Assembly (NCBI GenBank): GCA_903859815.1
Contig: CAIOOA010000223.1
Coordinates: forward strand, 1-55,852
Length of the DNA: 55,852 bases
Source: an uncultured Methylococcaceae bacterium
GTDB taxonomy: Bacteria > Pseudomonadota > Gammaproteobacteria > Methylococcales > Methylococcaceae
Direction: 5' to 3'
A model generated the notes under the pieces. The model did not search any database and was not told where the DNA came from. It worked only from the letters and a program-made list of their open reading frames with translations. A program made the position numbers and the translations under genes. Positions 20,005 to 48,170 of the stretch are shown here, one piece after another (the first letter of the stretch is position 1; the number at the start of each line of letters is the position of its first letter).

Positions 20005-20035
20005 GGCTGCCTCTTTTGTTCAGTCAATTAGGTTG

Positions 20036-20719: not shown

Positions 20720-20759
20720 TGACCTTCCATATTATGATTATTGATTGGAAAATCCCAAC

Positions 20760-21406: not shown

Positions 21407-21451
21407 TTTGATTGGCCCAAGGCAAGGGCTAATGTTGTGATGCTTTAAACC

Positions 21452-22369
21452 TCAGGCCAGCACCCGCAATGCCTGTTTTTGTTGCCGCTCCAATAATGCC
21501 ATGCAGCGTTGGTAATAATGCGGAAAATCCCTAGCGACTATTTGCTCCAAGTAAATAGAAAGCTGCGGGTCGCGTTTGGACTCGGCGACTAGGTGGGTAT
21601 AGCCAATGCCGTCGGCAAGGGTGAGTGCATCCCCGTAGCTGTCAAACAAATAGGAAATCGACACATCGGTATACGGGGAGTCTTGCCGACCTTGGTGATA
21701 AGCCAGGCAGGCTGACAGCATGTGTTGCTCGAAAATGACGAAATCCTGCTCTCGTTTGGGCCGACCTTCCCAAGCGAGTTGGTTGTCGGGATGTTCGATG
21801 AAGCGAATCGCACTCTCCGCGTAATAGCGAATGAAATCGGTTCTAGTGCCGCCAATGATGCCGCAATTCTCGGCTTTCAGATCACCTCCGACCGGCATGT
21901 AACGTTCGAATTCTTCGGGCATCCAGCCCCCATGGCGGCGAATGTCGTATTCTAAGCTTTCGGGCCGGTAAAAGGATGCGCCATAAGGGGTGCATTCTGG
22001 GTGTTGGGCGAAAACTGCGGCTTGTTCTAAGGATTTGGGCAAGGGTTCCCACAAAAAAACATCGTTGTCGATATGCACGAAAGCTTCTTCCTGCGCCGCG
22101 TAGGCATAGAGCTTGCCAATCGCCCACCAGTCTGGATCGTGGTCGGAAAGTGCGTTTAAGGCAAGACTCACCGAGCCAAATGGCAAACCAAGCCCGTCAA
22201 TCAGCATTTCCGCACCTGCATCATCCGTAATCAGGCAGGTGTCAGGATAATGGCGGCTGGCCAGTTCAAATGACAACACCCAAGACAACAGGTGGTGTTT
22301 GGGGGTTAGCCATCCCTGTCGCCGTTTGGCGACCAAGGGTTTGTTCCATAGCGACCAGACCGCCTTCAT
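21452..22369 (-). CDS. DUF6734 glycosyltransferase-like protein, last gene of eCIS run
   Basis: A 305-residue protein resembling nucleotide-sugar glycosyltransferases: KLYAYAAQEEAFVHIDNDVF contains a DND motif that could be the metal-binding DXD. It fits the DUF6734 group. The start is ATG 22369 because its ATGA overlaps the stop of the DUF6519 gene, a sign of translational coupling; the open frame further upstream lies inside that gene. It might glycosylate a particle component or the cell surface, but the coupling is the only evidence. Confidence 0.72.
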   Translation of the reverse strand: MKAVWSLWNKPLVAKRRQGWLTPKHHLLSWVLSFELASRHYPDTCLITDDAGAEMLIDGLGLPFGSVSLALNALSDHDPDWWAIGKLYAYAAQEEAFVHIDNDVFLWEPLPKSLEQAAVFAQHPECTPYGASFYRPESLEYDIRRHGGWMPEEFERYMPVGGDLKAENCGIIGGTRTDFIRYYAESAIRFIEHPDNQLAWEGRPKREQDFVIFEQHMLSACLAYHQGRQDSPYTDVSISYLFDSYGDALTLADGIGYTHLVAESKRDPQLSIYLEQIVARDFPHYYQRCMALLERQQKQALRVLA

Positions 22370-25008
22370 GGCAGCTTTGCCGTTGCCGTTGACACAAGGC
22401 GGGTTGAGCCTATGCCTTGATAAGCCCCACCTTGACCGTAACTGTAACCATAGTAACCCGGGGTTGGCGGCACTAACCAAAACCAAGTTTCGAAGTCAGC
22501 TTCGGGAACCGGCGATGCAAACACGCCGTCTGGCGAAACTCCGTCAGCATCCTCCACTTGTAACAAGGATCGCTTCAACACCAGCCTAGACAACAGCTTC
22601 GACGTAAAGCCCGCGGGAATCAGTGTGACCGGAGAATCATTGCCATATACCACTTGCAAGCGGGTAAAGCGGGCCGTCCCAGTGCCACCCGTCAACACAC
22701 CCAATCGGCTTCCGGGGATAAGTTGCGGTATCCTTGGAAAATCTAGCGTTGCGACATCAACCGAGCCGTTTCCAGTAAACAATGCATTACAACCGAATAG
22801 AAGCTGATCCCTCGTCGTTTTAATATCGAAAGTGATACGCTTTGGATCGCTGAATCCGCTGATGATAGTCTGATCCTTCTGGGAGCCCGCCACGATGCTT
22901 CCTCCTTTTACTTGTACATGGGACATAACTAAGGTGGCATAAGCCCCGCTGTAACCGACCGGCACCCAGACTTCCCTGCCGACAAACAGAGAAAAATCCT
23001 TGGGTGATAGCCAATTGTAGACCAAGCCGACACTGCCGTTCAGGGAATTCTCGACGGTCAAACCAACATAGCTGGGATTTTGGTTTAATTTGTAACGATG
23101 GACCGCCATCGTCGGCAATACGCTGGCCTGCTGATTGACCGATGTGCCGGCATTCGATGCCGTTTGAATGATGACGTTACTTTGCCCAATAGCCCAATTG
23201 GAAGCCGGACCTCCGTTGTCATAAACGTCGAACTCCCGTTCAAAATTGACATTGCCCAAGCGAGGCACATCACGCTTGAGGATGTCGGTGAGGAATGAGG
23301 TGGTTTGGGGAAATGGTTCCCAATTTAAAACTCCGTCATCGGGCATGCTGACTTCCGCAGGCAACACGACTGGCTGATAGGCGACTATCGGTCCGTCCGG
23401 TCCACCACCATAAGCGGCAGACAATCGATAAGGAATTTCCGTCGTGACAAAAAATGAACCATCATTGACGCTGTTTGGATTGAGGTGTTGGCGAACCAGC
23501 ACAGCAAGGCCCTCGGCCAACAAGTTGACGGGAATTTCTTGGGCAGGTAGCAAGGGTTTTTGCCTGCCATTGGCATCGATCTGCAACACCGAACAAACTT
23601 GTACGCTGCCGGTGGCAGGAATGAAAGGGGTACGCTGATCGATCACCTCAGTCGGCAAGCGGATGATGGCGAGTGGGGCGTAATGGTGATGAATTCCTAA
23701 AGGCGGGGCATGGTCAAGCAAATCAATGCTGGCATCGACACTGCGGGCAGCGAATGTCCAGTAGTCGCCCGCCTTGAATTCGCCGACATCCAAGCTAAAT
23801 TCAACTAGGATGCCGTTTTCCAACGCGAGTATAGTGCCAACGACTGGGACGTTGATGCCATTAGAACTCGCTGAAGTATTCAGGTCTTGATAAGCCGATC
23901 CATCAGCCTTGCGTACCGTGCCGGATTGGTCCCAACGCCGGATACGGGTGTTGCGGGAGGTATCGGTGTGGCCTTGGCCATCCACCGGGAATAAACCTGC
24001 GGGTAGCACATCATCTATCAAAATGGAGCGTGTCGCCTTATCCACGCCACCGGAGCGGATGCGGCGCAACACACCCGGTCTGCCGTGCAGTTCATGCCAA
24101 TCGTCGAGAATTTCTATCCAATCGCCCGCATGGAACCCCAGTACTTCGTCGCGACCAATGCTATCCACCACCAGACGGTTGCCACTTTGTATTTCAGTCA
24201 CCCGCGTCGCAACCGTGGCATTGTCACGCGACCATTTGAAAGTGGCCGTCCCCACTGGCCCACCCCGATGGATTTCGACCCGGTAGAGTTGGTTTTCCAA
24301 TCCCCTGTAACCTGCTTGGGGGGGGATGATGCAAGGGTTGGCCTCCCCCGTCACATTACCAGTCAAGGTGGTCAAGCGTCCGCCCGAAGGACGAATGGCT
24401 GTCGGCCAGTGGCTAACATCCTCGCTTGAGGGTGTGCAAGCCGCATTGCCGATATTGCCTAAGACCCTGACTTGCCAGACCGTTTGCAAACGCCCAGTGG
24501 TGTCCACCCCCACGGCTTTTTCGACGAGTCCGGGTTCCTGCAAATAAGTCAGCTCCCGTTGCCAGACATCCAAGTAAACCAGATATGGCCCTCCTGTCAA
24601 TGGGGGGCGATTGAACGCATCGGCTGGTGCAGATTGGTTAGTTAGGTTATAGGGAAGATAGGGTTGGTCAAAGAACGGTGTGCTTCCTTTGCCAACCGAC
24701 TCGGCCAAGGTGGCGTTCCATGTCAAAGGATTGATGCCGTGGTTTTCGGCTAACAGCCCATCCACATAAATCCGACCCTTGCCTATGCTAAGTTCCCCTC
24801 CGGTAAGCCTGATGCGGAAACCGTCAGGGGTTTCCCTAGGCACGGCAGCGGAACCTAGGCTGTCCAGCGTCCCGGCTTGGATGCGCCGGGCAACTTGGGC
24901 AACCCATTCATTCCAGTCGGCATCGAGTTGCACTCGGCCTTGTTGCATGAGGACACCCCAAAAATTATTGCTGGGGTCAAAGCTGATACGGCTTAAATCA
25001 AAACTCAT
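22366..25008 (-). CDS. DUF6519 domain protein (eCIS accessory/baseplate periphery)
   Basis: An 880-residue protein opening with the DUF6519 hallmark SFDLSRISFDPSNNFWGVLM followed by QQGRVQLDADWNEW. The body is beta-rich with many Gly/Asn/Pro turns (about residues 150-480 form a conserved DUF6519-like block; the C-terminal 350 residues are more variable). Homologs occur in eCIS loci next to baseplate genes; a tail-fibre-like or particle-anchoring role is possible. It begins 15 bases after the gpI-like gene and ends inside the glycosyltransferase-like gene start. Confidence 0.85.
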   Translation of the reverse strand: MSFDLSRISFDPSNNFWGVLMQQGRVQLDADWNEWVAQVARRIQAGTLDSLGSAAVPRETPDGFRIRLTGGELSIGKGRIYVDGLLAENHGINPLTWNATLAESVGKGSTPFFDQPYLPYNLTNQSAPADAFNRPPLTGGPYLVYLDVWQRELTYLQEPGLVEKAVGVDTTGRLQTVWQVRVLGNIGNAACTPSSEDVSHWPTAIRPSGGRLTTLTGNVTGEANPCIIPPQAGYRGLENQLYRVEIHRGGPVGTATFKWSRDNATVATRVTEIQSGNRLVVDSIGRDEVLGFHAGDWIEILDDWHELHGRPGVLRRIRSGGVDKATRSILIDDVLPAGLFPVDGQGHTDTSRNTRIRRWDQSGTVRKADGSAYQDLNTSASSNGINVPVVGTILALENGILVEFSLDVGEFKAGDYWTFAARSVDASIDLLDHAPPLGIHHHYAPLAIIRLPTEVIDQRTPFIPATGSVQVCSVLQIDANGRQKPLLPAQEIPVNLLAEGLAVLVRQHLNPNSVNDGSFFVTTEIPYRLSAAYGGGPDGPIVAYQPVVLPAEVSMPDDGVLNWEPFPQTTSFLTDILKRDVPRLGNVNFEREFDVYDNGGPASNWAIGQSNVIIQTASNAGTSVNQQASVLPTMAVHRYKLNQNPSYVGLTVENSLNGSVGLVYNWLSPKDFSLFVGREVWVPVGYSGAYATLVMSHVQVKGGSIVAGSQKDQTIISGFSDPKRITFDIKTTRDQLLFGCNALFTGNGSVDVATLDFPRIPQLIPGSRLGVLTGGTGTARFTRLQVVYGNDSPVTLIPAGFTSKLLSRLVLKRSLLQVEDADGVSPDGVFASPVPEADFETWFWLVPPTPGYYGYSYGQGGAYQGIGSTRLVSTATAKLP

Positions 25009-25023
25009 GATTAGTGTGCTCCC

Positions 25024-27327
25024 TCATGATTCGTAGAAAATACCGGCTTGAAGGCCGACCCGTAAAAATTCGGCAAGCCTAAGTTGCAAATTAGTTTCAC
25101 GTTGCGCTGGAAACAACGCATGAAATGCCCCCATTTCGCTTTCGTCACTGGCTCCCCTCCGAATCGCGTCAGGCGTGGCGCGGGTGAGTTGACAATAGGA
25201 TGGCACACCATAAAGTAAGGAGGTAAACCTAGGTGTAACATCCGCCTCGGCTGCTGCTGTTTCTGGTTGGCATCGGTATCGCCTAGGTACGAGCGAGGCG
25301 TAAGGTAAAAATGAAAAACGGACACAGCCGGATTGACGACGCGCCACAACGACTGGCGGAGCCGTGTCCCCCGGCGAGGCAAGTGCAAGAATCAGGCTGT
25401 TGGAAATGTTCAACCCAGGATCAATCGCGCTTGCCCTGATTTTGCCAATCAACGTACATGCCTCTAACGCAAGGGTGCCGCCCGATGAGACACCATCCAT
25501 TGCGGCGTAGGCGGTGTTCACGGGAGCATTTGAGTCGATGATACAGTCATTGGCGACAAGCCTTGAGCCTTCAATCACGCGCACCGCCCCTAAGATGGAC
25601 CATTCCAAGCTGACCGCGACACCGGTCAATTCCACTGACAAGCTTGCCACACCGGGAGAGGTGGGATTGCCTATGGCATCCAAGGCCAAGCCCGGTGTCA
25701 AGGTGGCATGACGGATGGCAAGCCTTGCCAATTGATTAGTGACTGAAGGCAATCGCAATGACCCGCCGGCCACTCTGACTCCCTCCAAGGCAAACGCACT
25801 GTCTTTGCCTCCTCTCACGGTCATATTGCCGCCGAGGATCAAGCTGGGCCAAGTTTGTTCAGCAGCGCGAATGGTCCATTCTCCGCCGGGTGGCACATTC
25901 ACAGAGGGCGTCTCTACATAGCGCCCACTGTCGGTGATTTCGACCACACCCTTGACCGCGCCAGCGAGAGCCGTCAGCGCGGCTTGGATCGTCGGAAAGT
26001 CATTTGGAACTTGCAATACCTTGACATCCGAGGCATCGGCTTCACGCGGTCGGGAGTATTCGCCACCCCCCAAGTCGGCGGTGAATCCGTAGTGGTACGT
26101 CAAAGCGACACTGCCGGGTGCTGGCAAGTCGGAAGCCACGGCGACTCGCCCCAACTCCGGGTCTATGGCATATTTTCCTAGCGGAGGAACATGCGCCCAG
26201 CCCAAGCCGTCGTCGCCGAGATGGCAAACCACCACATTCTGCCTGGGAACTTCAGCATCGTCCACGTAAAGCACGATGCTAGGGTCGGCATTGTCCAGTG
26301 GTTCGCTTGGGGTTTCCCTTGTCCCATAATAGAGTTCTTTGCGCTCTGCCAGCAATCGACGGCCAATTGGGTCAGGCACATTAATGGGGTCCGCCAAATG
26401 AGTGATTTCGTCTTCCGCGAGCGGATTGGCATAGAGTTGTAACGGGTGACCCAGCGGACTGACAAGATAGCGGCGATTATCAACCTTGGCGGCAGGGCTT
26501 TTGCTATGCCGGTAGGCATTGACCCGCCATAGGAATATGCCGATGTTGGGAATATTGAAACGCCCTTTGCCCGTCTCTATGTTCCGTACATCCACTGTGT
26601 GCGCCACTGAATCAAAAGCGCCACCGATGCGGGTCAGCGGTTCCCAGCGCCTAAGGTCGGGGGCATAAAGGCAATGGGTTCTGCGGTGGTTCATGTGTTG
26701 GGTGGCCGCCAATAATTGGAATTCCTCCACGGCGCGAGCGTTCCAGCCCGTGACATCGCGAGCCAGTTGTTCCAGCACGGACGCAGTGCCTTTGCGCCGC
26801 CGCAAGGCTATCGTGTGGGCAACCTCGGCACGGGCCAAGCCCTTGGCTTGACCTAGCGCATGAAGGGGTTCATAACCGATCAAATCGCCGATGTAAGGGA
26901 TTGCCCATTCGGCACAAGTCTCGATGAAAAGATCATCATAGAGTTGGGCGAGATTTTCTTCAATGACCGCAAACTCGTCCGCGAAAGCCATCAATAAAGC
27001 TTTCAATGGCCCACGGGCGGCTTTTTCATGCAATTCGGCAAGACGCTGCTGCTCGCTAGGGTTTGGATTGGGCAGGGCTTCAAGGGCGGCAAGCTCATTC
27101 ACTTCGGCTGTTGTCAGCAAGCCTCGAAAGTGGGAGGCTTTTTCCCGCAATGCATTGATGCGTTGTTGTTGCGTGGCATTCGGGCCAGGCAAGGCTTCCA
27201 AGGCCGCAAGCTCGCTGGCTTCCTCGGATGTCAGTGGATTGCGCAGGGATTCGGCAAGCTCGGCATCACGGATGCGGTGTATTGCCGGTAGCAAGCGGTA
27301 AAGGTTGTCGGCATTCGAGAGGGTCAT
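25024..27327 (-). CDS. gpI-like tail protein fused to probable beta-helix
   Basis: A 767-residue protein. The gpI-like baseplate part (LYRLLPAIHRIRDAE, then FIETCAEWAIPYIGDLIGYE) is interrupted at about residues 24-105 by an insertion with two similar 39-residue units (ELAALEALPGPN... and ELAALEALPNPN...). After about residue 440 come VPNDFPTIQAALTALAGAV and repeated short strands (GGSLRL, RLAIRHATLTPG), typical of a right-handed parallel beta-helix. The fused helix could be a receptor-binding or anchoring element. Its ATG overlaps the preceding stop by four bases. Confidence 0.85.
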   Translation of the reverse strand: MTLSNADNLYRLLPAIHRIRDAELAESLRNPLTSEEASELAALEALPGPNATQQQRINALREKASHFRGLLTTAEVNELAALEALPNPNPSEQQRLAELHEKAARGPLKALLMAFADEFAVIEENLAQLYDDLFIETCAEWAIPYIGDLIGYEPLHALGQAKGLARAEVAHTIALRRRKGTASVLEQLARDVTGWNARAVEEFQLLAATQHMNHRRTHCLYAPDLRRWEPLTRIGGAFDSVAHTVDVRNIETGKGRFNIPNIGIFLWRVNAYRHSKSPAAKVDNRRYLVSPLGHPLQLYANPLAEDEITHLADPINVPDPIGRRLLAERKELYYGTRETPSEPLDNADPSIVLYVDDAEVPRQNVVVCHLGDDGLGWAHVPPLGKYAIDPELGRVAVASDLPAPGSVALTYHYGFTADLGGGEYSRPREADASDVKVLQVPNDFPTIQAALTALAGAVKGVVEITDSGRYVETPSVNVPPGGEWTIRAAEQTWPSLILGGNMTVRGGKDSAFALEGVRVAGGSLRLPSVTNQLARLAIRHATLTPGLALDAIGNPTSPGVASLSVELTGVAVSLEWSILGAVRVIEGSRLVANDCIIDSNAPVNTAYAAMDGVSSGGTLALEACTLIGKIRASAIDPGLNISNSLILALASPGDTAPPVVVARRQSGCVRFSFLPYASLVPRRYRCQPETAAAEADVTPRFTSLLYGVPSYCQLTRATPDAIRRGASDESEMGAFHALFPAQRETNLQLRLAEFLRVGLQAGIFYES

Positions 27328-30185
27328 TGCAACAACTCCACTACGAGTAAAGCGGCATCCAACGTGAGCAATTCGGCAGCCTGCGGGCTTACTGTCAGGG
27401 TAGCCATGGGTGTTTCAGCGAACAGTCGGTTGGGAAGATCGGTGGACGATGGCATCTTCCGGTACAATGCAGCCACTTGCACAGCCTCGACACCAGCAAC
27501 TGCTTGCGCAGTGGCGGCAACTTCATCCGATGAAACGCCTTGGTCGAAGCTCCTCGTGTCGAAACCGAATGATTCGATTAAGCGTTTTTCAACAGCGGGC
27601 AACACCAAGGCTTTGTCGGCATCGGCGGACACCTTGACCAAAACCCTAAGGCCAAATCGGGAATCACGATAACTAACGATCCGCAACGGTAGCAATGGGT
27701 CGCCATAACTTTGCAATGCCGCTTGAAGATAGCGGTAGGTGTCGCTGTTCGCCGTCACCTCGGCACCATTTTCACCAGCCACGGTTAGGAAGACACCTTT
27801 GGCCGGGCCATTGGGAATCCAAAGCGCATGGGCTTTGGCGATGCCTGAAAAGGCCCGGGCAAAATCTTGATAGTCACGAATGGAAACTGCTCGCTCCAAG
27901 GTCAACACGGTCAACGGGGCGTTGGCCCTCGCCTTGCTTTCCCGTTCCGGGTCTTCGCCTCCACTGGCCGACTCGGGGTTTGACACGCCTGTGACACCCA
28001 AGGGGCGTGATAGCAGATTGGTTAATTTGCCGGCGGGGACATTGCCAGCCAAGCCCAATCCCTTGCGGTAAGTGGCACGAATGTTGTGGTCACCCGAAGG
28101 AAGAAGTGCACCTTCAATGCCATTGCCCATTTGCACAGTTGTCTTCGCTTCATCGTCGATTGCCAATGCATAAACTCTGTCGTTGACACCCCGTGCATAC
28201 AAGCTGCTGGTTTCCGTCCACAACAAGTCGTTGGCGCGCAGTTCCAAGGTCGATTTGCGTCCGCTGGGCGTGTTGGCACTCACGAACGTCAGCGGTGACT
28301 GGCGCAGACTAAAGCGTTGGTTCGCCAACCGTGCATCGCCACTGCCGATGATTTCAGCCACGGTCTCACCCTGTGTGGCACGGGCTACGTTGGCATTGAT
28401 CCGAGTGCTGTCTCGGTCGTAACAATATTTCATTGGGTCAGACAACATAAAATAGGTAAGCGAGCCGATCTCCCCAACCGCTGTGGGAAGCTTGTCGATG
28501 ATGGCGATTTCTTGGACTTCCTCATCGTCTTTTTCGGCGGGAACCCATTCCAAAGTAACAGTCCGAGCGATTAGCACTCCTTCGCGCCCATCCCGGTCTA
28601 ATATGCCTAAGCGTATTTGTGTAAGGTCATAGATGATTGGCGTTGACCCAGAAGGGTTTTGACTCCCTACGCTTCCATTTGATAACAAGGCACCAAATTC
28701 GGCGGGAGGCAGAGCCAGCCATTGGTCGCCAGAAAGCAGTTCGGGCGTTGTATTGATGCGCAGCGATTGACCCTCTTGGATAATCAAGGTTTCACCGTTG
28801 GACAGTGCCACGGTTGCATCAGGCATTCCTTTCCGCAAGCGGATGCGAGCCCGTTTGCCGCTAATCGCCAACAACCGACCCGGTGCTATATCGGGTTCCA
28901 GTCGTTCAAGCCGGATCTCGTTTCCGTAAAGCGGGTAGTCGAGCGGCCTTGCTGCCACCGGCAAGGCTTCGGACTGGGCTAGGACGAGATTTTCTCGGAT
29001 GCCTTGCGTGAACGAGTAAAGAGAGTCGGTCGTATCCGGCGTGATTCGAGTCACTTTGCCGGACAACCCGAAATCCGAGCGTGAGGGGAAACTCACTTGA
29101 GTGGCTCGATAAAGCCAGACATAACCTGACAAGCCCGATGCATGGCTGAAGTTTGCATTGGACACCAACGCGAACCAGCTTCCGGGCGTGATTTTCGGAT
29201 AGGCATTGTCGAGATCGATCAGGGAATTCTGTATCTCAAAATCTTTCCATTTGAAATTGCTTTGCCCCAAAGTACCGACGGTCAACCCTGCCACCGATGG
29301 ATTGTTGGTTGAATAAATCAGCCTTGGGTCCGGTGCATTATGGCCAAAAAGTGCTGTGCGTTGCCGGAATACGAAGACTGAAGCCTTGGCATGATCCGGG
29401 TCGTTCCATGGAATCGAGCTACTCAAGGGCGCATTCCATGACAATCGCGTCAGTTGCTTATCCCTGACTTCCTCGATGCCAGTGAGGACACGGATGTCCC
29501 ATTGATAACTGCTGGAATTGGTGACACGCTCTTGGCCCAACACCAGAATGACATCGCCCACTTGCAAGCCGCTGCCCAAGCCGGTCACCCACAGTGAAGT
29601 GTCTCCTAGACGAGGTTGCCATGCGACTGAACGCTGCACCGGCAAGGCATTCCATTCCGACCGGGCTTCCACGACCTCGACCGTTTCAAAGGTTTGCGGT
29701 TGCTGGCCCGGACCCGGCACACTTTGAACCTTGCTGCCAACCGGAATATTGACTGGCTCTGCGGCAAGTGCCGGATTTCCAGGCACTTCCTGCAAGGTGA
29801 AGGCTAAATAGGTGGAAGCCGCCACACCCGGAGCCAGTTCATAACCAATCAGCCGGGACAATTCTAAAATCGAGCGGCGTTCAGTCGCAGTGCGCAGGAA
29901 GTTCTCATTGGCAATCCGCTCTTGGTAGAACGTCAACACGTCCAGCGTGGAGGCAAGCGCATCGCACAATGCGATGGTGAAATCTGCGTCATCCCGACCG
30001 CCCAAACCTGCCAAGGCTGGCAAATCAGCGCTGGACAACCGGGCCAGCAAAGACTCTTTGAAACTGGCATGGACACCTGCTCGGTAGTTGATGGAAGACT
30101 GACCGGGAGGATTGTCAATACGGGTAGGGGTTGCCACATCCACCCCCGCGCAGCAACCGCAAGAATTGGCGGTGAAATCGTCCAT
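27324..30185 (-). CDS. Putative baseplate assembly protein (wedge, gpJ-like) 1
   Basis: A 953-residue protein of the putative baseplate assembly (gpJ/Afp11-12-like) family. N-terminal CGCCAGVDVATPTRI and NRAG-type NYRAGVHASFKESLL, followed by TFYQERIANENFLRTATERRS and a C-terminal REYQDFARAF-like SIRDYQDFARAFSGIAKAHA, are standard wedge-protein signatures. Overlaps the gpI-like start by four bases; its own ATG shares one base with the stop of the second wedge gene. Confidence 0.92.
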   Translation of the reverse strand: MDDFTANSCGCCAGVDVATPTRIDNPPGQSSINYRAGVHASFKESLLARLSSADLPALAGLGGRDDADFTIALCDALASTLDVLTFYQERIANENFLRTATERRSILELSRLIGYELAPGVAASTYLAFTLQEVPGNPALAAEPVNIPVGSKVQSVPGPGQQPQTFETVEVVEARSEWNALPVQRSVAWQPRLGDTSLWVTGLGSGLQVGDVILVLGQERVTNSSSYQWDIRVLTGIEEVRDKQLTRLSWNAPLSSSIPWNDPDHAKASVFVFRQRTALFGHNAPDPRLIYSTNNPSVAGLTVGTLGQSNFKWKDFEIQNSLIDLDNAYPKITPGSWFALVSNANFSHASGLSGYVWLYRATQVSFPSRSDFGLSGKVTRITPDTTDSLYSFTQGIRENLVLAQSEALPVAARPLDYPLYGNEIRLERLEPDIAPGRLLAISGKRARIRLRKGMPDATVALSNGETLIIQEGQSLRINTTPELLSGDQWLALPPAEFGALLSNGSVGSQNPSGSTPIIYDLTQIRLGILDRDGREGVLIARTVTLEWVPAEKDDEEVQEIAIIDKLPTAVGEIGSLTYFMLSDPMKYCYDRDSTRINANVARATQGETVAEIIGSGDARLANQRFSLRQSPLTFVSANTPSGRKSTLELRANDLLWTETSSLYARGVNDRVYALAIDDEAKTTVQMGNGIEGALLPSGDHNIRATYRKGLGLAGNVPAGKLTNLLSRPLGVTGVSNPESASGGEDPERESKARANAPLTVLTLERAVSIRDYQDFARAFSGIAKAHALWIPNGPAKGVFLTVAGENGAEVTANSDTYRYLQAALQSYGDPLLPLRIVSYRDSRFGLRVLVKVSADADKALVLPAVEKRLIESFGFDTRSFDQGVSSDEVAATAQAVAGVEAVQVAALYRKMPSSTDLPNRLFAETPMATLTVSPQAAELLTLDAALLVVELLQ

Positions 30186-33141: not shown

Positions 33142-33149
33142 GGGTTGCC

Positions 33150-33470: not shown

Positions 33471-33471
33471 A

Positions 33472-35487: not shown

Positions 35488-35491
35488 AAGC

Positions 35492-36148: not shown

Positions 36149-36178
36149 AATTTGCCAGTCTTAAAATATCTAAATTCG

Positions 36179-37978: not shown

Positions 37979-38001
37979 TTGTTTAGATTGGATGTTTCAA
38001 A

Positions 38002-40557: not shown

Positions 40558-40617
40558 CCATAGAACCGGTTCATGGTGTCCATGCCCGGTTGTTAACTTC
40601 AGAAAAAAACATCTTAA

Positions 40618-40886
40618 GCTCGTTTGCCATGGCTTGAAATAATTTCTCTTCCAATCCCGCGAGCAACCTCGACACCAACTTGTTGCTGATTCAACTCAGG
40701 AAGCATTGAAATGTTGCCAATTTGTAAACGAGGCAAACCATTTAATTCAGCCAAATGCGGGGTGATCCCAGGCATGGCTAATTGTTTGCTCAACTGCTCT
40801 TGCAACCCTGCCGCAAACGCATGGCGGTCTTCATGGCGGAAGCCTTTCAACACCAATTGATCGATATGGACAATCACTCGTTGCAT
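40618..40886 (-). CDS. Small conserved eCIS protein (about 89 residues)
   Basis: Starts MQRVIVHIDQLVLKGFRHED, followed by AFAAGLQEQLSKQLAMP. A strong AAGGGGGTGG ribosome site six bases before ATG 40886 decides the start (GTG 40892 also possible). It overlaps the ATPase stop and sits just before the DUF4157 genes, a position suggesting a cargo chaperone or loading factor. No domain is recognised. Confidence 0.75.
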
Positions 40887-42811
40887 AACCACCCCCTTGT
40901 TTCGGCATCGGAGAGCGGCCTTTCACGCTTGCCCCCTTCGCCATGGGCCGCCTGCAACAAATGCTCCATGCCCACTGGCCGGCCATCATCAGCGGCTAGG
41001 AAAGCGGCATTCAGCGCGATGTTGCGAATATTACCCCCAGAAACATTCAATTGGGCAAGTTTGCGATAATTTAACCCATCGACTGGCGTAGTAAGGGGAA
41101 ACACATTTTGCCAAATGGCTTCGCGCTGTTCTAGGTCTGGGAATGGAAACTGCACAATGAAACGCAAACGACGTTGGAAAGCAGTATCCAACGCGTTTTT
41201 TAGGTTTGTGGTGAGTATCGCCAAGCCGCTATAGGATTCCATGCGCTGCAATAAGTAGCTGACCTCAATATTGGCATAGCGATCATGGCTGTCTTTCACT
41301 TCGCTGCGCTTGCCAAACAGGGCATCCGCCTCGTCGAACAATAAAATGGCCCCACTGTCTTCGGCGGCATCAAACACGCGGCGTAAGTTCTTTTCAGTTT
41401 CGCCGATGTATTTGTTGACGATGGCGGACAAATCAATTCGATACAGGTCCAAACCCAATTCGTTGGCAAGCACTTCCGCCGCCATGGTTTTGCCCGTGCC
41501 GCTTTCCCCAGCGAACAAGGTGCTAAGCCCCAAGCCCCGCGAACTTTTTTGGGCAAAGCCCCATTCCTCGCAGACCTTCAACCGGTGGCGGACATGGGCA
41601 GCAATTTGCGACAGGATGGCTTTTTGCGGTTCGGGCAGGATCAAGTCTTCCCAGCGTGAAACTGGCTTGACACGCTGGGCCAAATCATCCAAGCGCCGCC
41701 TACTCAAACCCCGACACGCCTTCCATAGCGCTTGGTCAGGCGTGGGGCTGGTGGCGATGTCGGCTTGAACCGCTTCGCCAACTGCCGATATGGTTTTTGC
41801 ACTTAACCTAAACTGGGACGAAACACCCTCCAATGCACCGTTGATGCGTTTAGCGGAAGCACCCAAGGCTTGTTCCCACAAGCGCCTTTGGTCCATAGCA
41901 TTGGGTTTATTGACAGTGAATCGTAGGCCGCTACTATTGATATCCATTGTTTCGCTACTGGCAATAAACAAGCATCCCCCTATGCGTTCAGCCAAGCGAA
42001 TAGCGGATGGGACGTGAGTGCGCTCAGCGCAATCAATCAACAAGCCGCTGCCTAGCACGAGTGACTCCCGTTGCCACAATAGGCAAAAAGCATCCATTTC
42101 ATGTGCGCCCGCTGGGATGTCTTCTGCCTTAAGCCCATAAAGTTTCAAGCCAATGGCATCAGCCACGCTGGCGGCGACATCTTTTTGCCCATCGGCATCG
42201 TCACCGACCAATTGAATGGGCGGATAAGGCGCTGGTTTGCCCTCCAAGGCTTGCAATATGGCCTTGACGGTAAGCGCATGGGCATCCGCCATCGCAGACC
42301 GAGCTTCATGATGGCTTAATAAGGGTTGTAGGCGTGTGTCCAGATAATTGACACCCGCCAGAAAATGCAAAACCCGCTCGTCTATGCGCAATCGCGCATG
42401 AGTCAAACTCGTTTCTTCGACCACCTCAATGAAGCGCCATCGACGCAATGGACGGGCTGGCGTAAGCGCACTCCAGTGCGCTTGTTCCAACACATTCATC
42501 GCCAAACCAAGACTCACATACTGACGCTGGGAGTTGCCGTGAATAGCGGCGCACAACCCAGCCAAGGCAGAATCCATCTCCGCACCCGCGCAAAGCAGCA
42601 ACAAATCCCTTTCAAAATGGGTCAAAACAAACCATTCAGTCAAATAATCAATATTGGAGGTAAAGTTGTGTTCCAAACTCCCGTCCGATGCCATGGCAAC
42701 TTGGGCCGGTAAATCGGCAACGCTGGCAAGCTTGGCTTTGAGGCGTTCAAACTCGGCAATCAAACATTGCTGATTAGCCTCCATCCATTGAACGGTGTCT
42801 AGTTCGCTCAT
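40874..42811 (-). CDS. AAA-family ATPase of the eCIS
   Basis: A 645-residue two-module AAA ATPase. The C-terminal module has Walker A GESGTGKT (435-442), Walker B ILLFDEADALFG (489-500) and a C-terminal lid; the N-terminal module (about 200-300) looks degenerate, with VGDDADGQ in place of a P-loop. It belongs to the ATPase seen next to DUF4255 in nearly all eCIS (Afp15-like), probably for assembly. Coupled by overlap to DUF4255 and the 89-residue protein. Confidence 0.93.
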   Translation of the reverse strand: MSELDTVQWMEANQQCLIAEFERLKAKLASVADLPAQVAMASDGSLEHNFTSNIDYLTEWFVLTHFERDLLLLCAGAEMDSALAGLCAAIHGNSQRQYVSLGLAMNVLEQAHWSALTPARPLRRWRFIEVVEETSLTHARLRIDERVLHFLAGVNYLDTRLQPLLSHHEARSAMADAHALTVKAILQALEGKPAPYPPIQLVGDDADGQKDVAASVADAIGLKLYGLKAEDIPAGAHEMDAFCLLWQRESLVLGSGLLIDCAERTHVPSAIRLAERIGGCLFIASSETMDINSSGLRFTVNKPNAMDQRRLWEQALGASAKRINGALEGVSSQFRLSAKTISAVGEAVQADIATSPTPDQALWKACRGLSRRRLDDLAQRVKPVSRWEDLILPEPQKAILSQIAAHVRHRLKVCEEWGFAQKSSRGLGLSTLFAGESGTGKTMAAEVLANELGLDLYRIDLSAIVNKYIGETEKNLRRVFDAAEDSGAILLFDEADALFGKRSEVKDSHDRYANIEVSYLLQRMESYSGLAILTTNLKNALDTAFQRRLRFIVQFPFPDLEQREAIWQNVFPLTTPVDGLNYRKLAQLNVSGGNIRNIALNAAFLAADDGRPVGMEHLLQAAHGEGGKRERPLSDAETRGWLCNE

Positions 42812-44118
42812 GTGATGTTGACCCGTTGATTGAGGAAAACTGGCGGTGTGGCGGATCGGTCGATGATGGGGCTATCAATGCCGTCAACCCGAAGTCTCGC
42901 CAAGTGATTGCCGACCGGAGCATTGGGAATGACGAAGCTGAGGGTAGAGACCGGAGCGGCAAAGCTTTGCGGTGAATATTCTTGCTGACCCAACACTAAT
43001 GCCACTTGTTGTCCGGGACGCAAAACCGGACGGAAATTGATTGAAAAACTCGCCGTTCCGACACCATCCCTCGCCACTAAAATGGGCAAACCGGTGATTT
43101 CGGGCGCGATTGTCATGGCAAGGCGGTTACTCTCCCTAGGCGTGGCCTCACCGGGGCGCAATACACTGACGCCGACATGCCAAACCCCCACTGGAAAATT
43201 GGCGGCTTGGGCAACCGGAATGATGAACTGCATGAGAGCAGCCCCCCCTGTCCCCAAAGCGGCAATGCTTTGGCGAATATCAAAGCGGTCATTGACCAAT
43301 AAAATGGTACGGCCCGTCCCGTCAAGATGATGACCGCCAAGGTTGACGGTCTGACCCAAACGCGCCACGGGTTGGCCCTCTGCGAGGGTGACTTCCTCTA
43401 TCGTAGGCAGAGGCGGCAACAGGTCAGGGATGACTTGTACGCCCCGGTCGCGGTGGGTGACCGGATCGACCGGGCCACGGGACAGCACTGGCAGCGGCGA
43501 ACGGACGGGGCGGGTCGACTCGATCAACACCACGCTTGCCATATAAGCCGCGGTGGGGCGGAGATGACTTTGGGTTGCCGTCCAAATTTTCGACATTTCC
43601 TCTATGTTCAAATATTCGGGGGTAATCTTGATTTGCTCAATTTGGTTTTCCAATCCCGAGTCAGACAAAGCCCGTAAGGCCGGCGGCAAGGTGTTCCCTA
43701 CAGCGGGCGAGGGGCTCAAGGCGGTGAGGATGGCCTGCCGAGTCAGCACCGGGTTTTCATGGAGCAATTGCATCGCGTAACCCAGCAAAATCTCGCCATG
43801 CAAATCGCCACTACTGTAAGCGGACAACAGATAATGCAAATTTAGGGCAAGCGGCGGATTGGACATTCTTTGGCGGCCCGATGGGTCACGCGAGGGCAAG
43901 CCTTCATTGCGCCAGCCTAAATTAGGGGTGACTTGATGTAAGAAAAGATTCAGTTGGGACGCTTCGTTTCCGTTGCCGGGAACCACTTGATCGGGCGGCC
44001 CGACGCTGACCCTGACCGAGGTGCCAACGACACCGGCCACATTGTGGTTGATCAGCCCATCATTGAGCAAATCGCGCAATACTGCGGTGACTCCGGCAAT
44101 GGCAAGGGCGCTACTCAT
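42808..44118 (-). CDS. DUF4255 tail terminator (cap)
   Basis: A 436-residue protein. The N-terminal about 200 residues are DUF4255 (Afp16-like: VTAVLRDLLNDGLI, LNLFLHQVTPNLGWRNEGLP, LALNLHYLLSAYSSGDLHGE). The C-terminal about 200 residues contain Ig-like strands (TVNLGGHHLDGTGRTILLV), a TIG-like addition. It terminates tube and sheath polymerisation and sets the cap. Its start overlaps the Pro/Gln-rich gene by four bases. Confidence 0.93.
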   Translation of the reverse strand: MSSALAIAGVTAVLRDLLNDGLINHNVAGVVGTSVRVSVGPPDQVVPGNGNEASQLNLFLHQVTPNLGWRNEGLPSRDPSGRQRMSNPPLALNLHYLLSAYSSGDLHGEILLGYAMQLLHENPVLTRQAILTALSPSPAVGNTLPPALRALSDSGLENQIEQIKITPEYLNIEEMSKIWTATQSHLRPTAAYMASVVLIESTRPVRSPLPVLSRGPVDPVTHRDRGVQVIPDLLPPLPTIEEVTLAEGQPVARLGQTVNLGGHHLDGTGRTILLVNDRFDIRQSIAALGTGGAALMQFIIPVAQAANFPVGVWHVGVSVLRPGEATPRESNRLAMTIAPEITGLPILVARDGVGTASFSINFRPVLRPGQQVALVLGQQEYSPQSFAAPVSTLSFVIPNAPVGNHLARLRVDGIDSPIIDRSATPPVFLNQRVNIT

Positions 44119-44900
44119 ACCGCACCTCCCTTGCGTTTGTTCAGATAATCCTCTAAAGACATGGGTTGGCGGCGAGTTGCCGGGGTGGAACGCTTAGGTG
44201 GAGGGCTGTCATGCATGGCGGTGACTTCGATCCTGCCGATATGGACATGCACTTCGTTCACGGTGGTTTCTTTGGGTTGGCTAGACCGGGAAACGCCTGC
44301 TTGATAAGCAGCGGGGCTGCCGGGTTTTTCTTCCTGTAGTTGTGGTGGGTAAGGCGTGTTTAACAAAGGCTGCGGCAAGCTTGCCTGTCCCTTATGACGA
44401 ACTTCCAAAGGTGGGTTGCCATCACCCCTCATAGTCTGTAATTGACTCACTTCCACTGGTTGTTCGCCACCCAAAGCGCCATTGCCGATTGACACAGACA
44501 CGATTGGCTTTGTAGGGTTTTGCGAAGTTTGGGTCACCGCTTGTTGATTGGCAAGGGATATGACTATAGGCTTGGTGACAGCCAAATGATCTTCCATCAC
44601 AGGCTTTGAAGGTTTGATCGGGTTATCGTTGGGTTTGCCCACATTTTCGGAAGCTTGGACAACCGATGGCTTGGCTGGTTGTTGAAACGTTGAAGCTTCG
44701 GCTAAGCGAGCAGTCACTTCGGCAATGGGTGAGGTTTGGCTAACATCCGCTTGAGGCGTGGAGGGATTCGGTGTGGAAACCACTTCACCGCTTTGCGCCC
44801 ATTCCAATGGACCAGCAAAGGGCAAACGCGCTTGGCTATGGATGGCGGAAGCTCCCCCCATCAAGGTTTGACTAGCAAGACGGTGCAACAATCCACTCAT
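44115..44900 (-). CDS. Pro/Gln/Ser-rich eCIS protein
   Basis: A 261-residue protein, low-complexity from about 40 to 200 (many Pro, Gln, Ser, Val), ending in a conserved-looking tail: VNEVHVHIGRIEVTAM then QPMSLEDYLNKRKGG. It starts at ATG 44900 within the previous stop (overlap of four bases). The tail motif is a known eCIS-cluster hallmark in my memory, but the function is unknown; a flexible tether or length-determining role is a guess. Confidence 0.75.
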   Translation of the reverse strand: MSGLLHRLASQTLMGGASAIHSQARLPFAGPLEWAQSGEVVSTPNPSTPQADVSQTSPIAEVTARLAEASTFQQPAKPSVVQASENVGKPNDNPIKPSKPVMEDHLAVTKPIVISLANQQAVTQTSQNPTKPIVSVSIGNGALGGEQPVEVSQLQTMRGDGNPPLEVRHKGQASLPQPLLNTPYPPQLQEEKPGSPAAYQAGVSRSSQPKETTVNEVHVHIGRIEVTAMHDSPPPKRSTPATRRQPMSLEDYLNKRKGGAV

Positions 44901-45616
44901 GCCAACACCCGCTCCAAATAGGCAGTCCTGCGCAGCTCTGACAGGGCCAAAATGTCTTGTTCGCGCCAACCATAGGCTTGCGCCAAGTGATGCACATCAT
45001 CCAACAAACGTGTCGCTTGCGCCTCGACCTCTTCCCACAGGTAATGAGCGATGTCGAAGGGTGCGGACCAGACATGCTTGCACATTTCGCAGGTGAAGTC
45101 GAAGGACAAGTCGGCTAATGGGTCGGCCTCTTCCAGTGCAGACTCCACGCGGTCAATCGACGGCAGCATGGCATCGTCTATCGATTGGGTATCGTCAGTG
45201 GGGATGAGGCAATGTTGCAACAGAGAACGGGCGGCGAGTTCAACATCGGGTTCGCCCACAATTTGCGCCAAATCCCGACTGTTAGGAGGGCGGAAATGGA
45301 ACCCATCCACGACAACAGGGAAACTCGCGGTTGGTTGAACATCCAGCAGATCAGAGGCATTTTGCTCAAACTCCAAACGTTCGCCGCATTGGGGGCAATC
45401 CAAATAAGCACGAAGACGGGGCCCAAACGTTTCCAAACGCAACTGTAACAAAGCCGCGTTGCGCCTTCCCAAGGGTTGGTCTGCGAGCAGGTCAGGATTT
45501 GTCTCCGGCAAGGCTAAGGCATACAACAATAGCGCCCGGTCAAGCGGATGCCGGTTGCGCCCGTATTCCCAAGCATGCAACAAGTCACTGGCCGCAGATG
45601 CAGTCATGGCGGGCAT
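44897..45616 (-). CDS. CXXC-containing eCIS baseplate-like protein
   Basis: A 239-residue protein with two Cys pairs (C74-P-Q-C77 and C176-E-M-C179) that could form a zinc ribbon, plus NRHPLDRALLLYALA at the start and YGWREQDILALSELRR at the end. Resembles the T4 gp26/gp28-type baseplate proteins reported in eCIS. It abuts the tube gene. The structural assignment is tentative; the zinc site is seen as a motif only. Confidence 0.78.
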   Translation of the reverse strand: MPAMTASAASDLLHAWEYGRNRHPLDRALLLYALALPETNPDLLADQPLGRRNAALLQLRLETFGPRLRAYLDCPQCGERLEFEQNASDLLDVQPTASFPVVVDGFHFRPPNSRDLAQIVGEPDVELAARSLLQHCLIPTDDTQSIDDAMLPSIDRVESALEEADPLADLSFDFTCEMCKHVWSAPFDIAHYLWEEVEAQATRLLDDVHHLAQAYGWREQDILALSELRRTAYLERVLA

Positions 45617-46140
45617 TACAGCGGTTCGTTGAAGCTCGGCTCGGTCGGTTCGGTGACATCATAATCACGTTCCCAACCCTCGTTTTCCAATTTGATGTGT
45701 TGGATGGCAATGGCGTTGGCATTGGCATCCAAATCGGGCATGGCTTGGAATTCCGAAACCCAGCAACGGAAAACTTTGTAGGCCAAAGCAAGCTGTCCGG
45801 CTTCGTTGTAGATTTCAATGATGATGTCCTTGCGGAAATCTTTCAGAGACACTTCCGCTCCTAAGCCAGAACCGAAATTCCAGACTTTGTTGGCCCATTT
45901 TTCAAACTCGGTGTCGTGGGTGACACCTCGTTCCAGCGTGATGGCTTCAAACTTGGTGCGTCCCGGGGATTTGCGCGACGTGGACGGGTCACCGCCCTCC
46001 CGATGTTCGACCAATTCAGTCGAACGCTTAAGTGAACCAACCTTGGAAATGCCGGCGACATAGCGGCCATCCCATTTCACCCGGAATTTAAAATTTTTAT
46101 AAGGATCAAACCGTTGTGCATTAATTGAAAACTGTGCCAT
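45616..46140 (-). CDS. Tail tube protein (gp19-like)
   Basis: A 174-residue T4 gp19-like inner-tube protein. It contains FKFRVKWDGRYVAGISKVGS, the central TLERGVTHDTEFEKWANKVW and the C-terminal FRCWVSEFQAMPDLDANANA block. Placement next to the sheath is standard. The ATG shares a base with the preceding stop of the CXXC gene in the opposite sense of reading order. Confidence 0.94.
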   Translation of the reverse strand: MAQFSINAQRFDPYKNFKFRVKWDGRYVAGISKVGSLKRSTELVEHREGGDPSTSRKSPGRTKFEAITLERGVTHDTEFEKWANKVWNFGSGLGAEVSLKDFRKDIIIEIYNEAGQLALAYKVFRCWVSEFQAMPDLDANANAIAIQHIKLENEGWERDYDVTEPTEPSFNEPL

Positions 46141-46154
46141 GGATGTTCTCCTTG

Positions 46155-47717
46155 TCAGGCCTGGATCTGGCCTGCCAATTGTTGGATTTTGATGACGACG
46201 AACTCAGCCGGTTTCAGCGGTGCAAACCCAACCACGATATTGACAATCCCTAAATTGATGTCATTTTGAGTGGTGGTTTCCCGGTCACATTTGACGAGGT
46301 AAGCCTCCCTAGGGGTTTTGCCTTGGAATGCGCCCTGACGGAAAAGATTTTGCATGAAGGCACCGATATTGAGCCTGATCTGAGCCCATAAAGGTTCGTC
46401 ATTCGGCTCGAACACGACCCATTGCGTACCTCGGTAAAGGCTTTCCTCTATATATAACGCAGTTCGCCGCACGGGTAGGTACTTCCATTCGGATGCCAGC
46501 AAATCGGCCCCTGCCAAGGTCCTGGCCCCCCATACGACATTGCCGGCCACCGGGAAACTACGCAGACAATTCAGACCTAAGGGATTGAGCCGCCCATTTT
46601 CCCCGTCGGTGAGGGTATAGGTAAACCCTTGCACCCCTGAAAATGATGCATCCAAGCCGGCTGGGGCTTTCCACACCCCTCGCTGTGCATCGGTGCGAGC
46701 GATGATGCCCGCCACCGTGCCGCAAGAGGCAAAACTGCTGAGGCGTAATTCGTTGAGAGGGTCGGGTATGCGCAGGCGTGGGAAGTAAGACACCGAGTTG
46801 CGTGCATTGTCGTTGCCAATCGCGGTGCGAATGGCATTCACTCCAGTCTCCGCCGTCGTGACCGCCGTACTCGGGTTGGCCGTCCATGAATCGGGCGGGT
46901 CGACGATCAAGACAGCCCGTCGGGTCTGACAATAAGCGGCCGCAGCGGCCCATGTCGCGTTGGCCACCTCGGTGGTCGAGGACAGGGGAGGGATGCACAG
47001 CAAATTGAATAAGTCTGACGAATCAAGGGCATAAATACCCGTCCGTGCCGCCTGATTGCCAGTGATTTCAGCATCGGTGACCGCGCTGCCATCATCGTTG
47101 GCTGTTCCCACCGCCGCCACGGTCGCATTGTTAGGTCTTTCGCCAGCAGGGGCTGAAGTCCTGACCCTCACGAAACTCGATTCCTGCGCCAGCACGGTGT
47201 TGACAAAACGAGGGTCAGATGCTTGACCCGACACGTTGCGGAATGTTTCCGAGGCGATGACCTTGGTACTGCCCGGAACTTCGAGACGCTGGATCGTCAA
47301 ATTGAATAATGATGTGTTGGCAACATCTCTGGTGGCATGGTCAACGATGGCTCTCAAAGAAGCGCCCCACGTCCCTGGACTGGAAGCCTCCAGAACCAAG
47401 TTGCCAGTGGCTGTCACCAGCGTGATGGTCGGGGTACTGGCGGCCACATTGCCATTAAATACACGCACAATAATCGCATCGGTTCCGCCATTCTGAAAAA
47501 ACTGGCTGACCGCATAACTCATTGTGCTCAATCGGCTAAGTCCGCCAAATAATTGGGTGAATTCGGCAAAACTCTGAATTCGCACCGCTTGGTTGACAGG
47601 GCCTTGTGCGGCCCGGCCAATGAAGGCAGTGATCGAGGTGGCAACTGCGGTGATCGTGCGTACCCCACTGGGTACTTCTTCTATATAAACACCTGGGTAC
47701 GACAGCGCGACAGGCAT
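46155..47717 (-). CDS. Contractile tail sheath protein
   Basis: A 520-residue sheath subunit. Diagnostic pieces: YPGVYIEEVPSGVRTITAVA at the start, ITAFIGRAAQGPVNQ, FFQNGGTDAIIVRVF, and toward the end GARTLAGADLLASEWKYLPV and RRTALYIEESLYRGTQWVVF, which place the protein in the phage tail sheath family. Only one sheath gene is seen, whereas some eCIS have several. It follows the first small gene by 57 bases. Confidence 0.97.
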   Translation of the reverse strand: MPVALSYPGVYIEEVPSGVRTITAVATSITAFIGRAAQGPVNQAVRIQSFAEFTQLFGGLSRLSTMSYAVSQFFQNGGTDAIIVRVFNGNVAASTPTITLVTATGNLVLEASSPGTWGASLRAIVDHATRDVANTSLFNLTIQRLEVPGSTKVIASETFRNVSGQASDPRFVNTVLAQESSFVRVRTSAPAGERPNNATVAAVGTANDDGSAVTDAEITGNQAARTGIYALDSSDLFNLLCIPPLSSTTEVANATWAAAAAYCQTRRAVLIVDPPDSWTANPSTAVTTAETGVNAIRTAIGNDNARNSVSYFPRLRIPDPLNELRLSSFASCGTVAGIIARTDAQRGVWKAPAGLDASFSGVQGFTYTLTDGENGRLNPLGLNCLRSFPVAGNVVWGARTLAGADLLASEWKYLPVRRTALYIEESLYRGTQWVVFEPNDEPLWAQIRLNIGAFMQNLFRQGAFQGKTPREAYLVKCDRETTTQNDINLGIVNIVVGFAPLKPAEFVVIKIQQLAGQIQA

Positions 47718-47774
47718 GATAGTCTCTCCATTTAAAATGGTTGCGAGGGTAGGGCCGGACTCATTGAGCCACCG

Positions 47775-48170
47775 CTACGGCGTGGCATCGCGGGCAACTA
47801 GAATCTGGATGTTGGCCGGCTTGTCCGTACTGGAATTACTGAATTTGAGTTGGCGGGGCGCTAAGCCGAACAAGGCCACACTGCCGCCAGAAAAGATTTG
47901 AGGACTGTCCAAAATCACCGTCGTGGCAGAATCCGCAGCGCCGTCATTTGCTTTGAAGCTAAGGTGTGGGCCATAGCTGGAAGAACTGATGGTGAGCAAG
48001 TGGATGGAATTTGCCGCCCCAGACTGAATATTGACGAGCTTGTTGGTGTCACCGGGGGCGATGGTGACATCAATACGGTCTATGCCCTCTGCTTCAATGG
48101 GCGACCTAGAAATCGACAATGCAGCACTATCAGTCACTTGCACCGTCATCGACCAGCTTAACGTAGCCAT
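47775..48170 (-). CDS. Small beta-rich unknown protein, first gene of the eCIS run
   Basis: A 131-residue protein beginning MATLSWSMTVQVTDSAALSI with beta-strand-like alternation. No signal peptide or known domain. The start is set at ATG 48170, behind AAGGAG (spacing six). It is the first gene downstream of the putative promoter and might be a shell or decoration component, but this is unsupported. Confidence 0.75.
   Translation of the reverse strand: MATLSWSMTVQVTDSAALSISRSPIEAEGIDRIDVTIAPGDTNKLVNIQSGAANSIHLLTISSSSYGPHLSFKANDGAADSATTVILDSPQIFSGGSVALFGLAPRQLKFSNSSTDKPANIQILVARDATP

What the first reader, a model, noticed from the sequence alone, without database searches (positions are those of the whole stretch)
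21452..48170. Complete 27-kb eCIS locus in a likely methanotroph
Seen: 21 consecutive minus-strand genes with sheath, tube, cap, ATPase, hub, spike, PAAR, gp25, wedges and two DUF4157 proteins, without head or T6SS membrane genes. Known: such sets form extracellular contractile particles. Inferred: a nitrogen-fixing methanotroph assembles particles to target neighbours or grazers.
Basis: partly seen in the sequence, partly recalled or inferred. Interest (0 to 1): 0.85.

Follow-up and report, generated by a model that had tools for sequence, protein, structure and literature searches.

The report
Protein-injector operon with swapped payload
A bacterium of a methane-oxidizer family carries a complete operon for a phage-tail-like syringe particle, and a sister species has almost the same particle but different payload proteins, which suggests the payload is a replaceable module.

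Summary
Twenty-one minus-strand genes (21452-48170) form one tight operon for a contractile injection system (CIS): sheath, tube, cap, AAA+ ATPase, tube initiator, hub, spike, PAAR-like tip, gp25, two wedges, a Tail_I-like protein, a DUF6519 (eBAP5) fibre and two DUF4157 proteins. All frames are open; 18 operon genes compared with a sister species show dN/dS of 0-0.37. It is a new member of a known kind, the extracellular CIS; sheath relatives occur in many phyla.

New here: a sister-species MAG (G029) has the same operon at 96-97.5% DNA identity, fibre 93% identical, but 36150-40789 is replaced. That stretch holds both DUF4157 cargo genes and part of a 91-residue gene. The edges are sharp. 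A cyanobacterial pair shows a second payload change; another pair keeps one cargo, so exchange is not universal. D4157a has a PD-(D/E)XK-like nuclease region (moderate evidence) and a hydrophobic hairpin. D4157b recurs, 57% identical, on a more diverged particle.

Host: Methylococcaceae by kin; NifH-family and PQQ alcohol dehydrogenase genes are present, but no pmoA is in this assembly. "Extracellular" and "neighbours or grazers" remain inference; related Streptomyces CISs act on their own producer.

The parts
47775..48170 (-). g1: small protein upstream of sheath, family of unknown function
   Evidence: no Pfam/NCBIfam/PHROG hit; relatives in 17 of 102 searched stretches, window and sister included
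46155..47717 (-). sheath
   Evidence: PF17482, PF04984; PDB sheaths, best 8bky_A E 3e-74
45616..46140 (-). tube protein (gp19)
   Evidence: PF06841 E 2e-45
44897..45616 (-). T4_baseplate-like protein
   Evidence: PF12322 E 5e-4, below cut-off
44115..44900 (-). Pro-rich protein, function unknown
   Evidence: no family hit; highest dN/dS of the 20 genes compared, 0.37
42808..44118 (-). cap protein (Pvc16_N)
   Evidence: PF14065 E 4e-49
40874..42811 (-). AAA+ ATPase with winged-helix domain (Pvc15-like)
   Evidence: PF00004, PF22977
40614..40886 (-). small92: conserved unnamed family between ATPase and cargo; the edge of DNA identity with G029 lies inside this gene
   Evidence: no Pfam/NCBIfam/PHROG/PDB hit; in 57 of 102 stretches, 55 of the 72 with an ATPase; ATPase just upstream in 51 of 56 ORFs
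36150..40789 (-). replaced cargo cassette (payload module)
   Evidence: no DNA match to G029 beyond a 164-nt piece at 67%, between blocks of 97.5% and 96.0% identity
38002..40557 (-). D4157a: cargo with CxCG..CxxC leader, eCIS core with HELTH, PD-(D/E)XK-like region, hydrophobic hairpin
   Evidence: PF13699; Tox-REase-9 E 3.5e-4, below cut-off; shared motif; fold; hydropathy
36179..37978 (-). D4157b: second eCIS-core cargo
   Evidence: PF13699; 57% identical to a cargo in L099
35492..36148 (-). CIS_tube (tube initiator-like)
   Evidence: PF19266
35125..35487 (-). LysM-like baseplate protein
   Evidence: weak Phage_tail_X, LysM, PHROG baseplate and endolysin hits over the LysM-like region
33993..35135 (-). 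hub (VgrG-related)
   Evidence: NF033848 E 1.5e-4, below cut-off; conserved in relatives
33472..33996 (-). spike (gp5/VgrG OB domain)
   Evidence: PF04717; PDB VgrG-type chains, best E 8e-6
33150..33470 (-). PAAR-like tip
   Evidence: DUF4280 and PAAR_motif, both below cut-off; no PDB match
32776..33141 (-). gp25 wedge
   Evidence: PF04965
30185..32779 (-). baseplate wedge J1
   Evidence: PF04865, phrog_219
27324..30185 (-). baseplate wedge J2
   Evidence: PF04865, phrog_219
25024..27327 (-). Tail_I-like baseplate protein with long C-terminal region
   Evidence: weak TIGR02242 (E 0.09) and phrog_4017 (E 0.04); conserved in relatives; no PDB match
22366..25008 (-). tail fibre: DUF6519 (eBAP5) N-terminal part, variable C-terminal part
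   Evidence: PF20129 E 1e-41; 37 of 61 differences from G029 lie at aa 641-800; no PDB match
21452..22369 (-). DUF6734 protein, function unknown, last gene
   Evidence: PF20508 E 9e-61; overlaps the fibre gene by 4 nt with the start I chose

Best explanation
The operon makes a phage-tail-like contractile syringe that carries DUF4157 cargo proteins. Shown from sequence: the gene set, open frames, purifying selection, and a different cargo cassette in two sister species whose particles are nearly identical. Inferred: the two DUF4157 proteins are loaded into the tube with help from the ATPase and perhaps small92; the particle binds a target surface through the DUF6519 fibre; the sheath contracts; and D4157a enters the membrane by its hydrophobic hairpin and cuts nucleic acid, while D4157b has an unknown role. 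Payload and aim evolve separately: cargo can be replaced as a block, and the fibre diversifies at its tip. Release by lysis and use against other cells are the least certain steps.
For: Gene set. dN/dS 0-0.37 for 20 genes (18 of the operon, 2 flanking), no internal stops. G029: 97.5% over 40790-48368, 96.0% over 19227-36149, nothing but a 164-nt, 67% piece in the cassette; G029 has only one eCIS_core match, and its frame matches the window cargos only over the core region at 45-53%. The cassette genes have the widest gaps (23-56 nt) apart from g1-sheath. D4157b is 57% identical to a cargo in L099, a particle whose cap is 31%, ATPase 44%, sheath 53% and tube 87% identical. Nostoc MG11 and Komarekiella: ATPase 95%, cap 97.5%, small92 91%, cargo alike only over about 228 aa at 53%. 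Motif D..IGEIKP in three cargos and restriction-endonuclease-like fold ranking. DUF4157 proteins Cgo1/Cgo2 were shown to be tube-lumen cargo in AlgoCIS (PMC8894135, passages). DUF6519 is reported as a fibre marker (PMC12923769).
Confidence: 0.6

Rival explanations
1. The particle works on its own cell or on kin, as in Streptomyces: it stays in the cytoplasm or docks at the producer's envelope, and its nuclease/membrane cargo drives regulated lysis, DNA release or differentiation.
For: Best-scoring solved sheath match 8bky, recalled as Streptomyces. Cargo layout resembles Tme: N-terminal DUF4157, hydrophobic helices, nuclease-like region, upstream of the tube-initiator/spike genes (PMC11126660 passages). 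No space for an immunity gene between the cassette genes, although many tested eCIS toxins lack one (PMC8213781, passages).
Against: A DUF6519 fibre with a varying tip is present. In the tree the Streptomyces/Kitasatospora pair lies outside the window's 29-row group, but that fork has support 86 and is drawn open. D4157a is not the largest ORF, as Tme is.
Confidence: 0.26
2. The particle is anchored to internal membranes, comparable to the thylakoid-anchored CIS of Anabaena, since methanotrophs also have stacked internal membranes (recalled).
For: Baseplate and fibre components are the parts that mediate anchoring in tCIS (PMC8894136, passages), and both kinds are present here.
Against: The fibre is DUF6519/eBAP5, whereas the tCIS crown is eBAP4 (PMC12923769); no anchor was identified here.
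Confidence: 0.06
3. The cassette difference is a binning or assembly artefact rather than an exchange.
For: G029 contigs C258 and C124 both end inside the cassette and, by eye, share a cargo stretch; both genomes are fragmented drafts (315 and about 540 contigs).
Against: The window contig runs through the cassette; in G029 each flank is joined to other cargo sequence for 1.8-3 kb; one edge lies 1 nt before a start codon; the Nostoc/Komarekiella pair shows a like pattern.
Confidence: 0.07

Closest known systems
Streptomyces davawensis CIS with Tme effector (PMC11126660, passages and one section read)
   Same: its sheath clade also holds Proteobacteria and Chloroflexota; DUF4157 effector with membrane and nuclease parts upstream of the tube initiator
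   Different: there Tme is the largest ORF and carries an EndA-like nuclease; here D4157a is smaller than three other ORFs, its nuclease region is PD-(D/E)XK-like, and a DUF6519 fibre is present. Its sheath was not compared directly with the window's
AlgoCIS (PMC8894135, passages read)
   Same: two DUF4157 cargo proteins with alike N-terminal parts and differing C-terminal parts
   Different: fibre and cage parts not compared here
Streptomyces lividans SLP with Sle1/Sle2 (PMC13277306, abstract and two sections read)
   Same: modular effectors with differing C-terminal domains and a DUF4157 partner
   Different: effector genes upstream of the structural genes in the reverse direction; intracellular particle
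eCIS loci with eBAP5/DUF6519 fibres (PMC12923769, passages and one section read)
   Same: N-terminal DUF6519 anchor with a changing C-terminal region
   Different: 'Methylo' does not occur in its main text; the C-terminal region here has no match in the phage collection
Pseudomonas/Comamonadaceae loci L070-L072
   Same: sheath 68-69%, tube 91-92% identical and the same gene order up to the cargo
   Different: other cargos, though related: L070 shares D4157a's nuclease region, L071 and L072 share the D4157b C-terminal part at 25-27%; I did not search for literature on them

Membership tests
extracellular contractile injection system (eCIS) | sheath, tube, baseplate wedge, gp25, spike | tested here: met
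extracellular contractile injection system (eCIS) | AAA+ ATPase and Pvc16-type cap | tested here: met
extracellular contractile injection system (eCIS) | eCIS_core (DUF4157) proteins | tested here: met
   two, both with HELTH
extracellular contractile injection system (eCIS) | no capsid, portal or terminase beside it | tested here: met
   none in the flank ORFs scanned; not every ORF was scanned
extracellular contractile injection system (eCIS) | no T6SS trans-envelope complex in the locus | tested here: met
   none recognised in the locus; one TssM/IcmF-type domain on another contig
extracellular contractile injection system (eCIS) | fibre gene | tested here: met
   DUF6519, E 1e-41, a fibre marker in PMC12923769
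extracellular contractile injection system (eCIS) | release from the cell and action from outside | not testable with these tools
   needs microscopy
S. davawensis-type CIS (Tme group) | N-terminal DUF4157 effector just upstream of baseplate genes | tested here: met
S. davawensis-type CIS (Tme group) | effector is the largest ORF of the cluster | tested here: not met
   851 aa against 953, 880 and 864
S. davawensis-type CIS (Tme group) | remote homology to phage tape measure | not tested
   no profile search of the cargos for this was run
PD-(D/E)XK nuclease (D4157a about aa 205-390) | D...ExK motif | tested here: met
   aligned in three cargos
PD-(D/E)XK nuclease (D4157a about aa 205-390) | curated Pfam cut-off (Tox-REase-9) | tested here: not met
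   21.2 bits against 27.3
PD-(D/E)XK nuclease (D4157a about aa 205-390) | restriction-endonuclease-like fold | tested here: inconclusive
thylakoid-anchored CIS | eBAP4 crown fibre and Cis12 extension | not tested
   the fibre found is DUF6519/eBAP5; Cis12 extension not compared
aerobic methanotroph (host) | pmoA | tested here: inconclusive
   0 in this assembly, 3 of 6 congeners and 23 of 38 family genomes have it; no 16S rRNA was found in the assembly either

The most novel reading that the evidence does not exclude
This CIS lineage has a dedicated plug-in payload bay: the stretch between the ATPase/small92 genes and the tube-initiator gene is exchanged as a block across species, and the unnamed small92 family is a cargo-docking adaptor that feeds differing DUF4157 cargos to the ATPase and tube.
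Probability: 0.3. Interest if true: 0.55.

Novelty: new member of a known kind. Interest (0 to 1): 0.42.

Why it matters
CISs are widespread, but what they carry and whom they strike is mostly unknown. A natural pair with nearly the same particle, a 93% identical fibre and different cargo separates payload from aim, so cargo effects could be compared on an almost constant particle. It also places an intact, selected CIS in a family important for methane removal, where my searches of the open-licence library listed no paper on aerobic methane-oxidizing bacteria with a CIS; large CIS surveys probably include such genomes in tables I could not read.

Tried and rejected
small92 as the PAAR protein: rejected; the PAAR-like gene is 33150-33470. 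Prophage remnant: no head genes in the flank ORFs scanned and strong purifying selection. DUF6734 as a glycosyltransferase: suspected from its sequence; only a chance-level PDB match, E 0.33; left open. Two plasmids carry distant DUF6734 proteins, 28-30% identical. Fibre C-terminal part against phages: no match. Nuclease region against plasmids: no match. D4157a C-terminal 647 aa against 369 class genomes: only the window's own. small92 fold: helical model, pLDDT 85, no solved structure stands out. Further pairs: 9 examined; only Nostoc/Komarekiella had an ATPase of 94% identity or more with cargo found on both sides. Micromonospora (95.6%) had no DUF4157 ORF in the fetched stretch; the Nitrotoga/Nitrosomonadales pair has masked sequence. 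In lower-identity pairs the cargo matched in part (for example 68% over 427 of 1093 aa, L083/L076; 55% over 443 aa, L071/L072) or nearly in full (67% over 644 of 652 aa, L091/L099, where the ATPase is 66%). GC contrast as proof of a foreign cassette: withdrawn, since the chromosome flanks are 0.51.
Full report
Observation. The window is a whole contig (C223) of a 5.8-Mb draft genome, 99% complete. Between 48170 and 21452 lie 21 consecutive minus-strand genes, 26,719 bp in all, with a largest gap of 57 nt and 11 of 20 junctions overlapping. Pfam names most of them; NCBIfam and PHROGs add weak baseplate and hub hits. The PAAR-like gene is 33150-33470, below Pfam's cut-offs. Flank ORFs scanned show no capsid, portal or terminase; an fn3 protein at 54883-55527 weakly matches a PHROG minor tail protein. 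The genome search gave one Phage_sheath_1C match and two eCIS_core matches, all in this locus, and one TssM/IcmF-type domain elsewhere, so a T6SS or a relative of it may also be present.

Host. A sister genome in the same genus (G029) is the public MAG 'uncultured Methylococcaceae bacterium Loclat_bin-06492': contig number and length match (L073). PmoA is found in 23 of 38 family genomes and 3 of 6 congeners but not in this assembly; 16S rRNA was not found either, as often happens with multi-copy genes in MAGs (general knowledge). A NifH-family match (E 5e-130) and a PQQ alcohol dehydrogenase well above cut-off (709 against 480 bits) are present. 'Nitrogen-fixing methanotroph' is therefore likely but not shown in full.

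Distribution. A sheath match occurs in 16 of 38 family genomes and eCIS_core in 13 of 38, from 8 of 15 genera, with none in the 6 genomes of g8. Some of the sheath matches are distant lineages and may belong to other particles. I used 79 of these 80 (L073 is the G029 contig again). In a quick tree of 95 sheaths the window, G029 and G006 group together (SH-aLRT 98), next to Pseudomonas and Comamonadaceae (99), while other Methylococcaceae sheaths fall elsewhere; this points to horizontal transfer. Of 92 inner branches 26 are open.

Maintenance. Between the window and G029, 20 genes (18 of the operon and 2 flanking) have dN/dS of 0 to 0.37 with no internal stop. small92 and the two cargo genes were left out: small92 is 56% identical in G029 and the cargos have no full-length counterpart.

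Swapped payload. DNA identity to G029 is 97.5% over 40790-48368 and 96.0% over 19227-36149, but 36150-40789 has no match except 164 nt at 67%. One edge is 1 nt before the CIS_tube start codon (36148); the other lies inside small92. G029 has other cargo at each edge: a 900-aa eCIS_core frame ending 100 nt before its contig end, and a 507-aa frame open at the other contig's end with a SitA5-escort-like region (E 4e-19, 69 bits against a cut-off of 160). Each was read as a separate contig end. Cassette GC is 0.489, against 0.542 and 0.550 in the structural blocks and 0.51 in both chromosome flanks, so composition alone does not say which part is foreign. D4157b is 57% identical to a cargo in UBA4132 (L099), although that particle's cap, ATPase and sheath are only 31%, 44% and 53% identical (tube 87%). 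Among nine further pairs, Nostoc MG11 and Komarekiella have structural proteins about 95-100% identical and small92 91%, while the cargo matches only over its first 228 aa at 53%. Against a simple rule, L091 and L099 keep one cargo at 67% over 644 aa with an ATPase of 66%. Cargo thus can, but need not, change independently of the particle.

Aim. The fibre carries DUF6519, described as the fibre domain eBAP5 (PMC12923769; passages and section 11 read). Between sisters 37 of 61 fibre differences lie in aa 641-800; against G006 identity falls from 0.56-0.89 to 0.15-0.28 beyond about aa 480. Target recognition thus appears to change at the tip. The C-terminal part has no match in the phage collection.

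small92. This family has no name in Pfam, NCBIfam or PHROGs. It was found in 57 of 102 stretches, and in 55 of the 72 that have an ATPase hit. Of 56 ORFs with a domain of at least 55 aa, 51 follow the ATPase closely and 42 are followed by a DUF4157 ORF within 700 nt; the other 14 may be cut off or truly different, which I did not sort out. Position suggests a cargo-loading role; nothing else does yet. That it changes together with the cargo in G029 but stays 91% alike in the Nostoc/Komarekiella pair leaves co-variation open.

Mechanism and rivals. DUF4157 proteins as tube-lumen cargo are known from AlgoCIS (PMC8894135, passages). Tme of S. davawensis and Sle1 of S. lividans show that related payloads can act on the producer (PMC11126660 passages and one section; PMC13277306 abstract and two sections). 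I therefore put 0.6 on a released particle with exchangeable payload and 0.26 on a self-acting one.

Print check. Searches for CIS with methanotroph, Methylococcaceae, Methylomonas, and eCIS with methane-oxidizing listed 4, 0, 0 and 3 papers; by title none is about aerobic methane-oxidizing bacteria (they concern archaea and their partners). I read only the listings of those. The single 'Methylo' in PMC11297309 is a methylotrophic methanogen. Supplementary tables of large surveys could not be read.

Noticed in passing
window 49233-49795 and 52991-53551: Two copies of a roughly 560-bp element with 45-nt inverted repeats at the ends (91% complementary), parts of it also matched in the sister genome: looks like a MITE family.
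   Followed up: partly
window 55663-55838: Tandem array of alternating 22-nt units at the contig end.
   Followed up: no
window 54021-54320 and 54881-55180: 300-nt direct repeat, 92% identical.
   Followed up: no
window 11011-19152: Nitrogen-fixation-related cluster: nitrogenase component 1-type protein, DUF269, ferredoxin-type proteins, DUF364; a class-3 lipase sits beside it.
   Followed up: partly
window 47775-48170: Unnamed small family directly upstream of the sheath, seen in 17 of 102 stretches from several phyla.
   Followed up: partly
L037:17594-19723: Cargo of G006 with weak annexin-like and DUF4347-like matches, both below cut-off; its partner cargo (L037:15178-17526) ends in an HNH-like stretch by eye.
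   Followed up: no
G000 contig C34:6663-6977: TssM/IcmF C-terminal domain: the same genome may have a T6SS as well.
   Followed up: no
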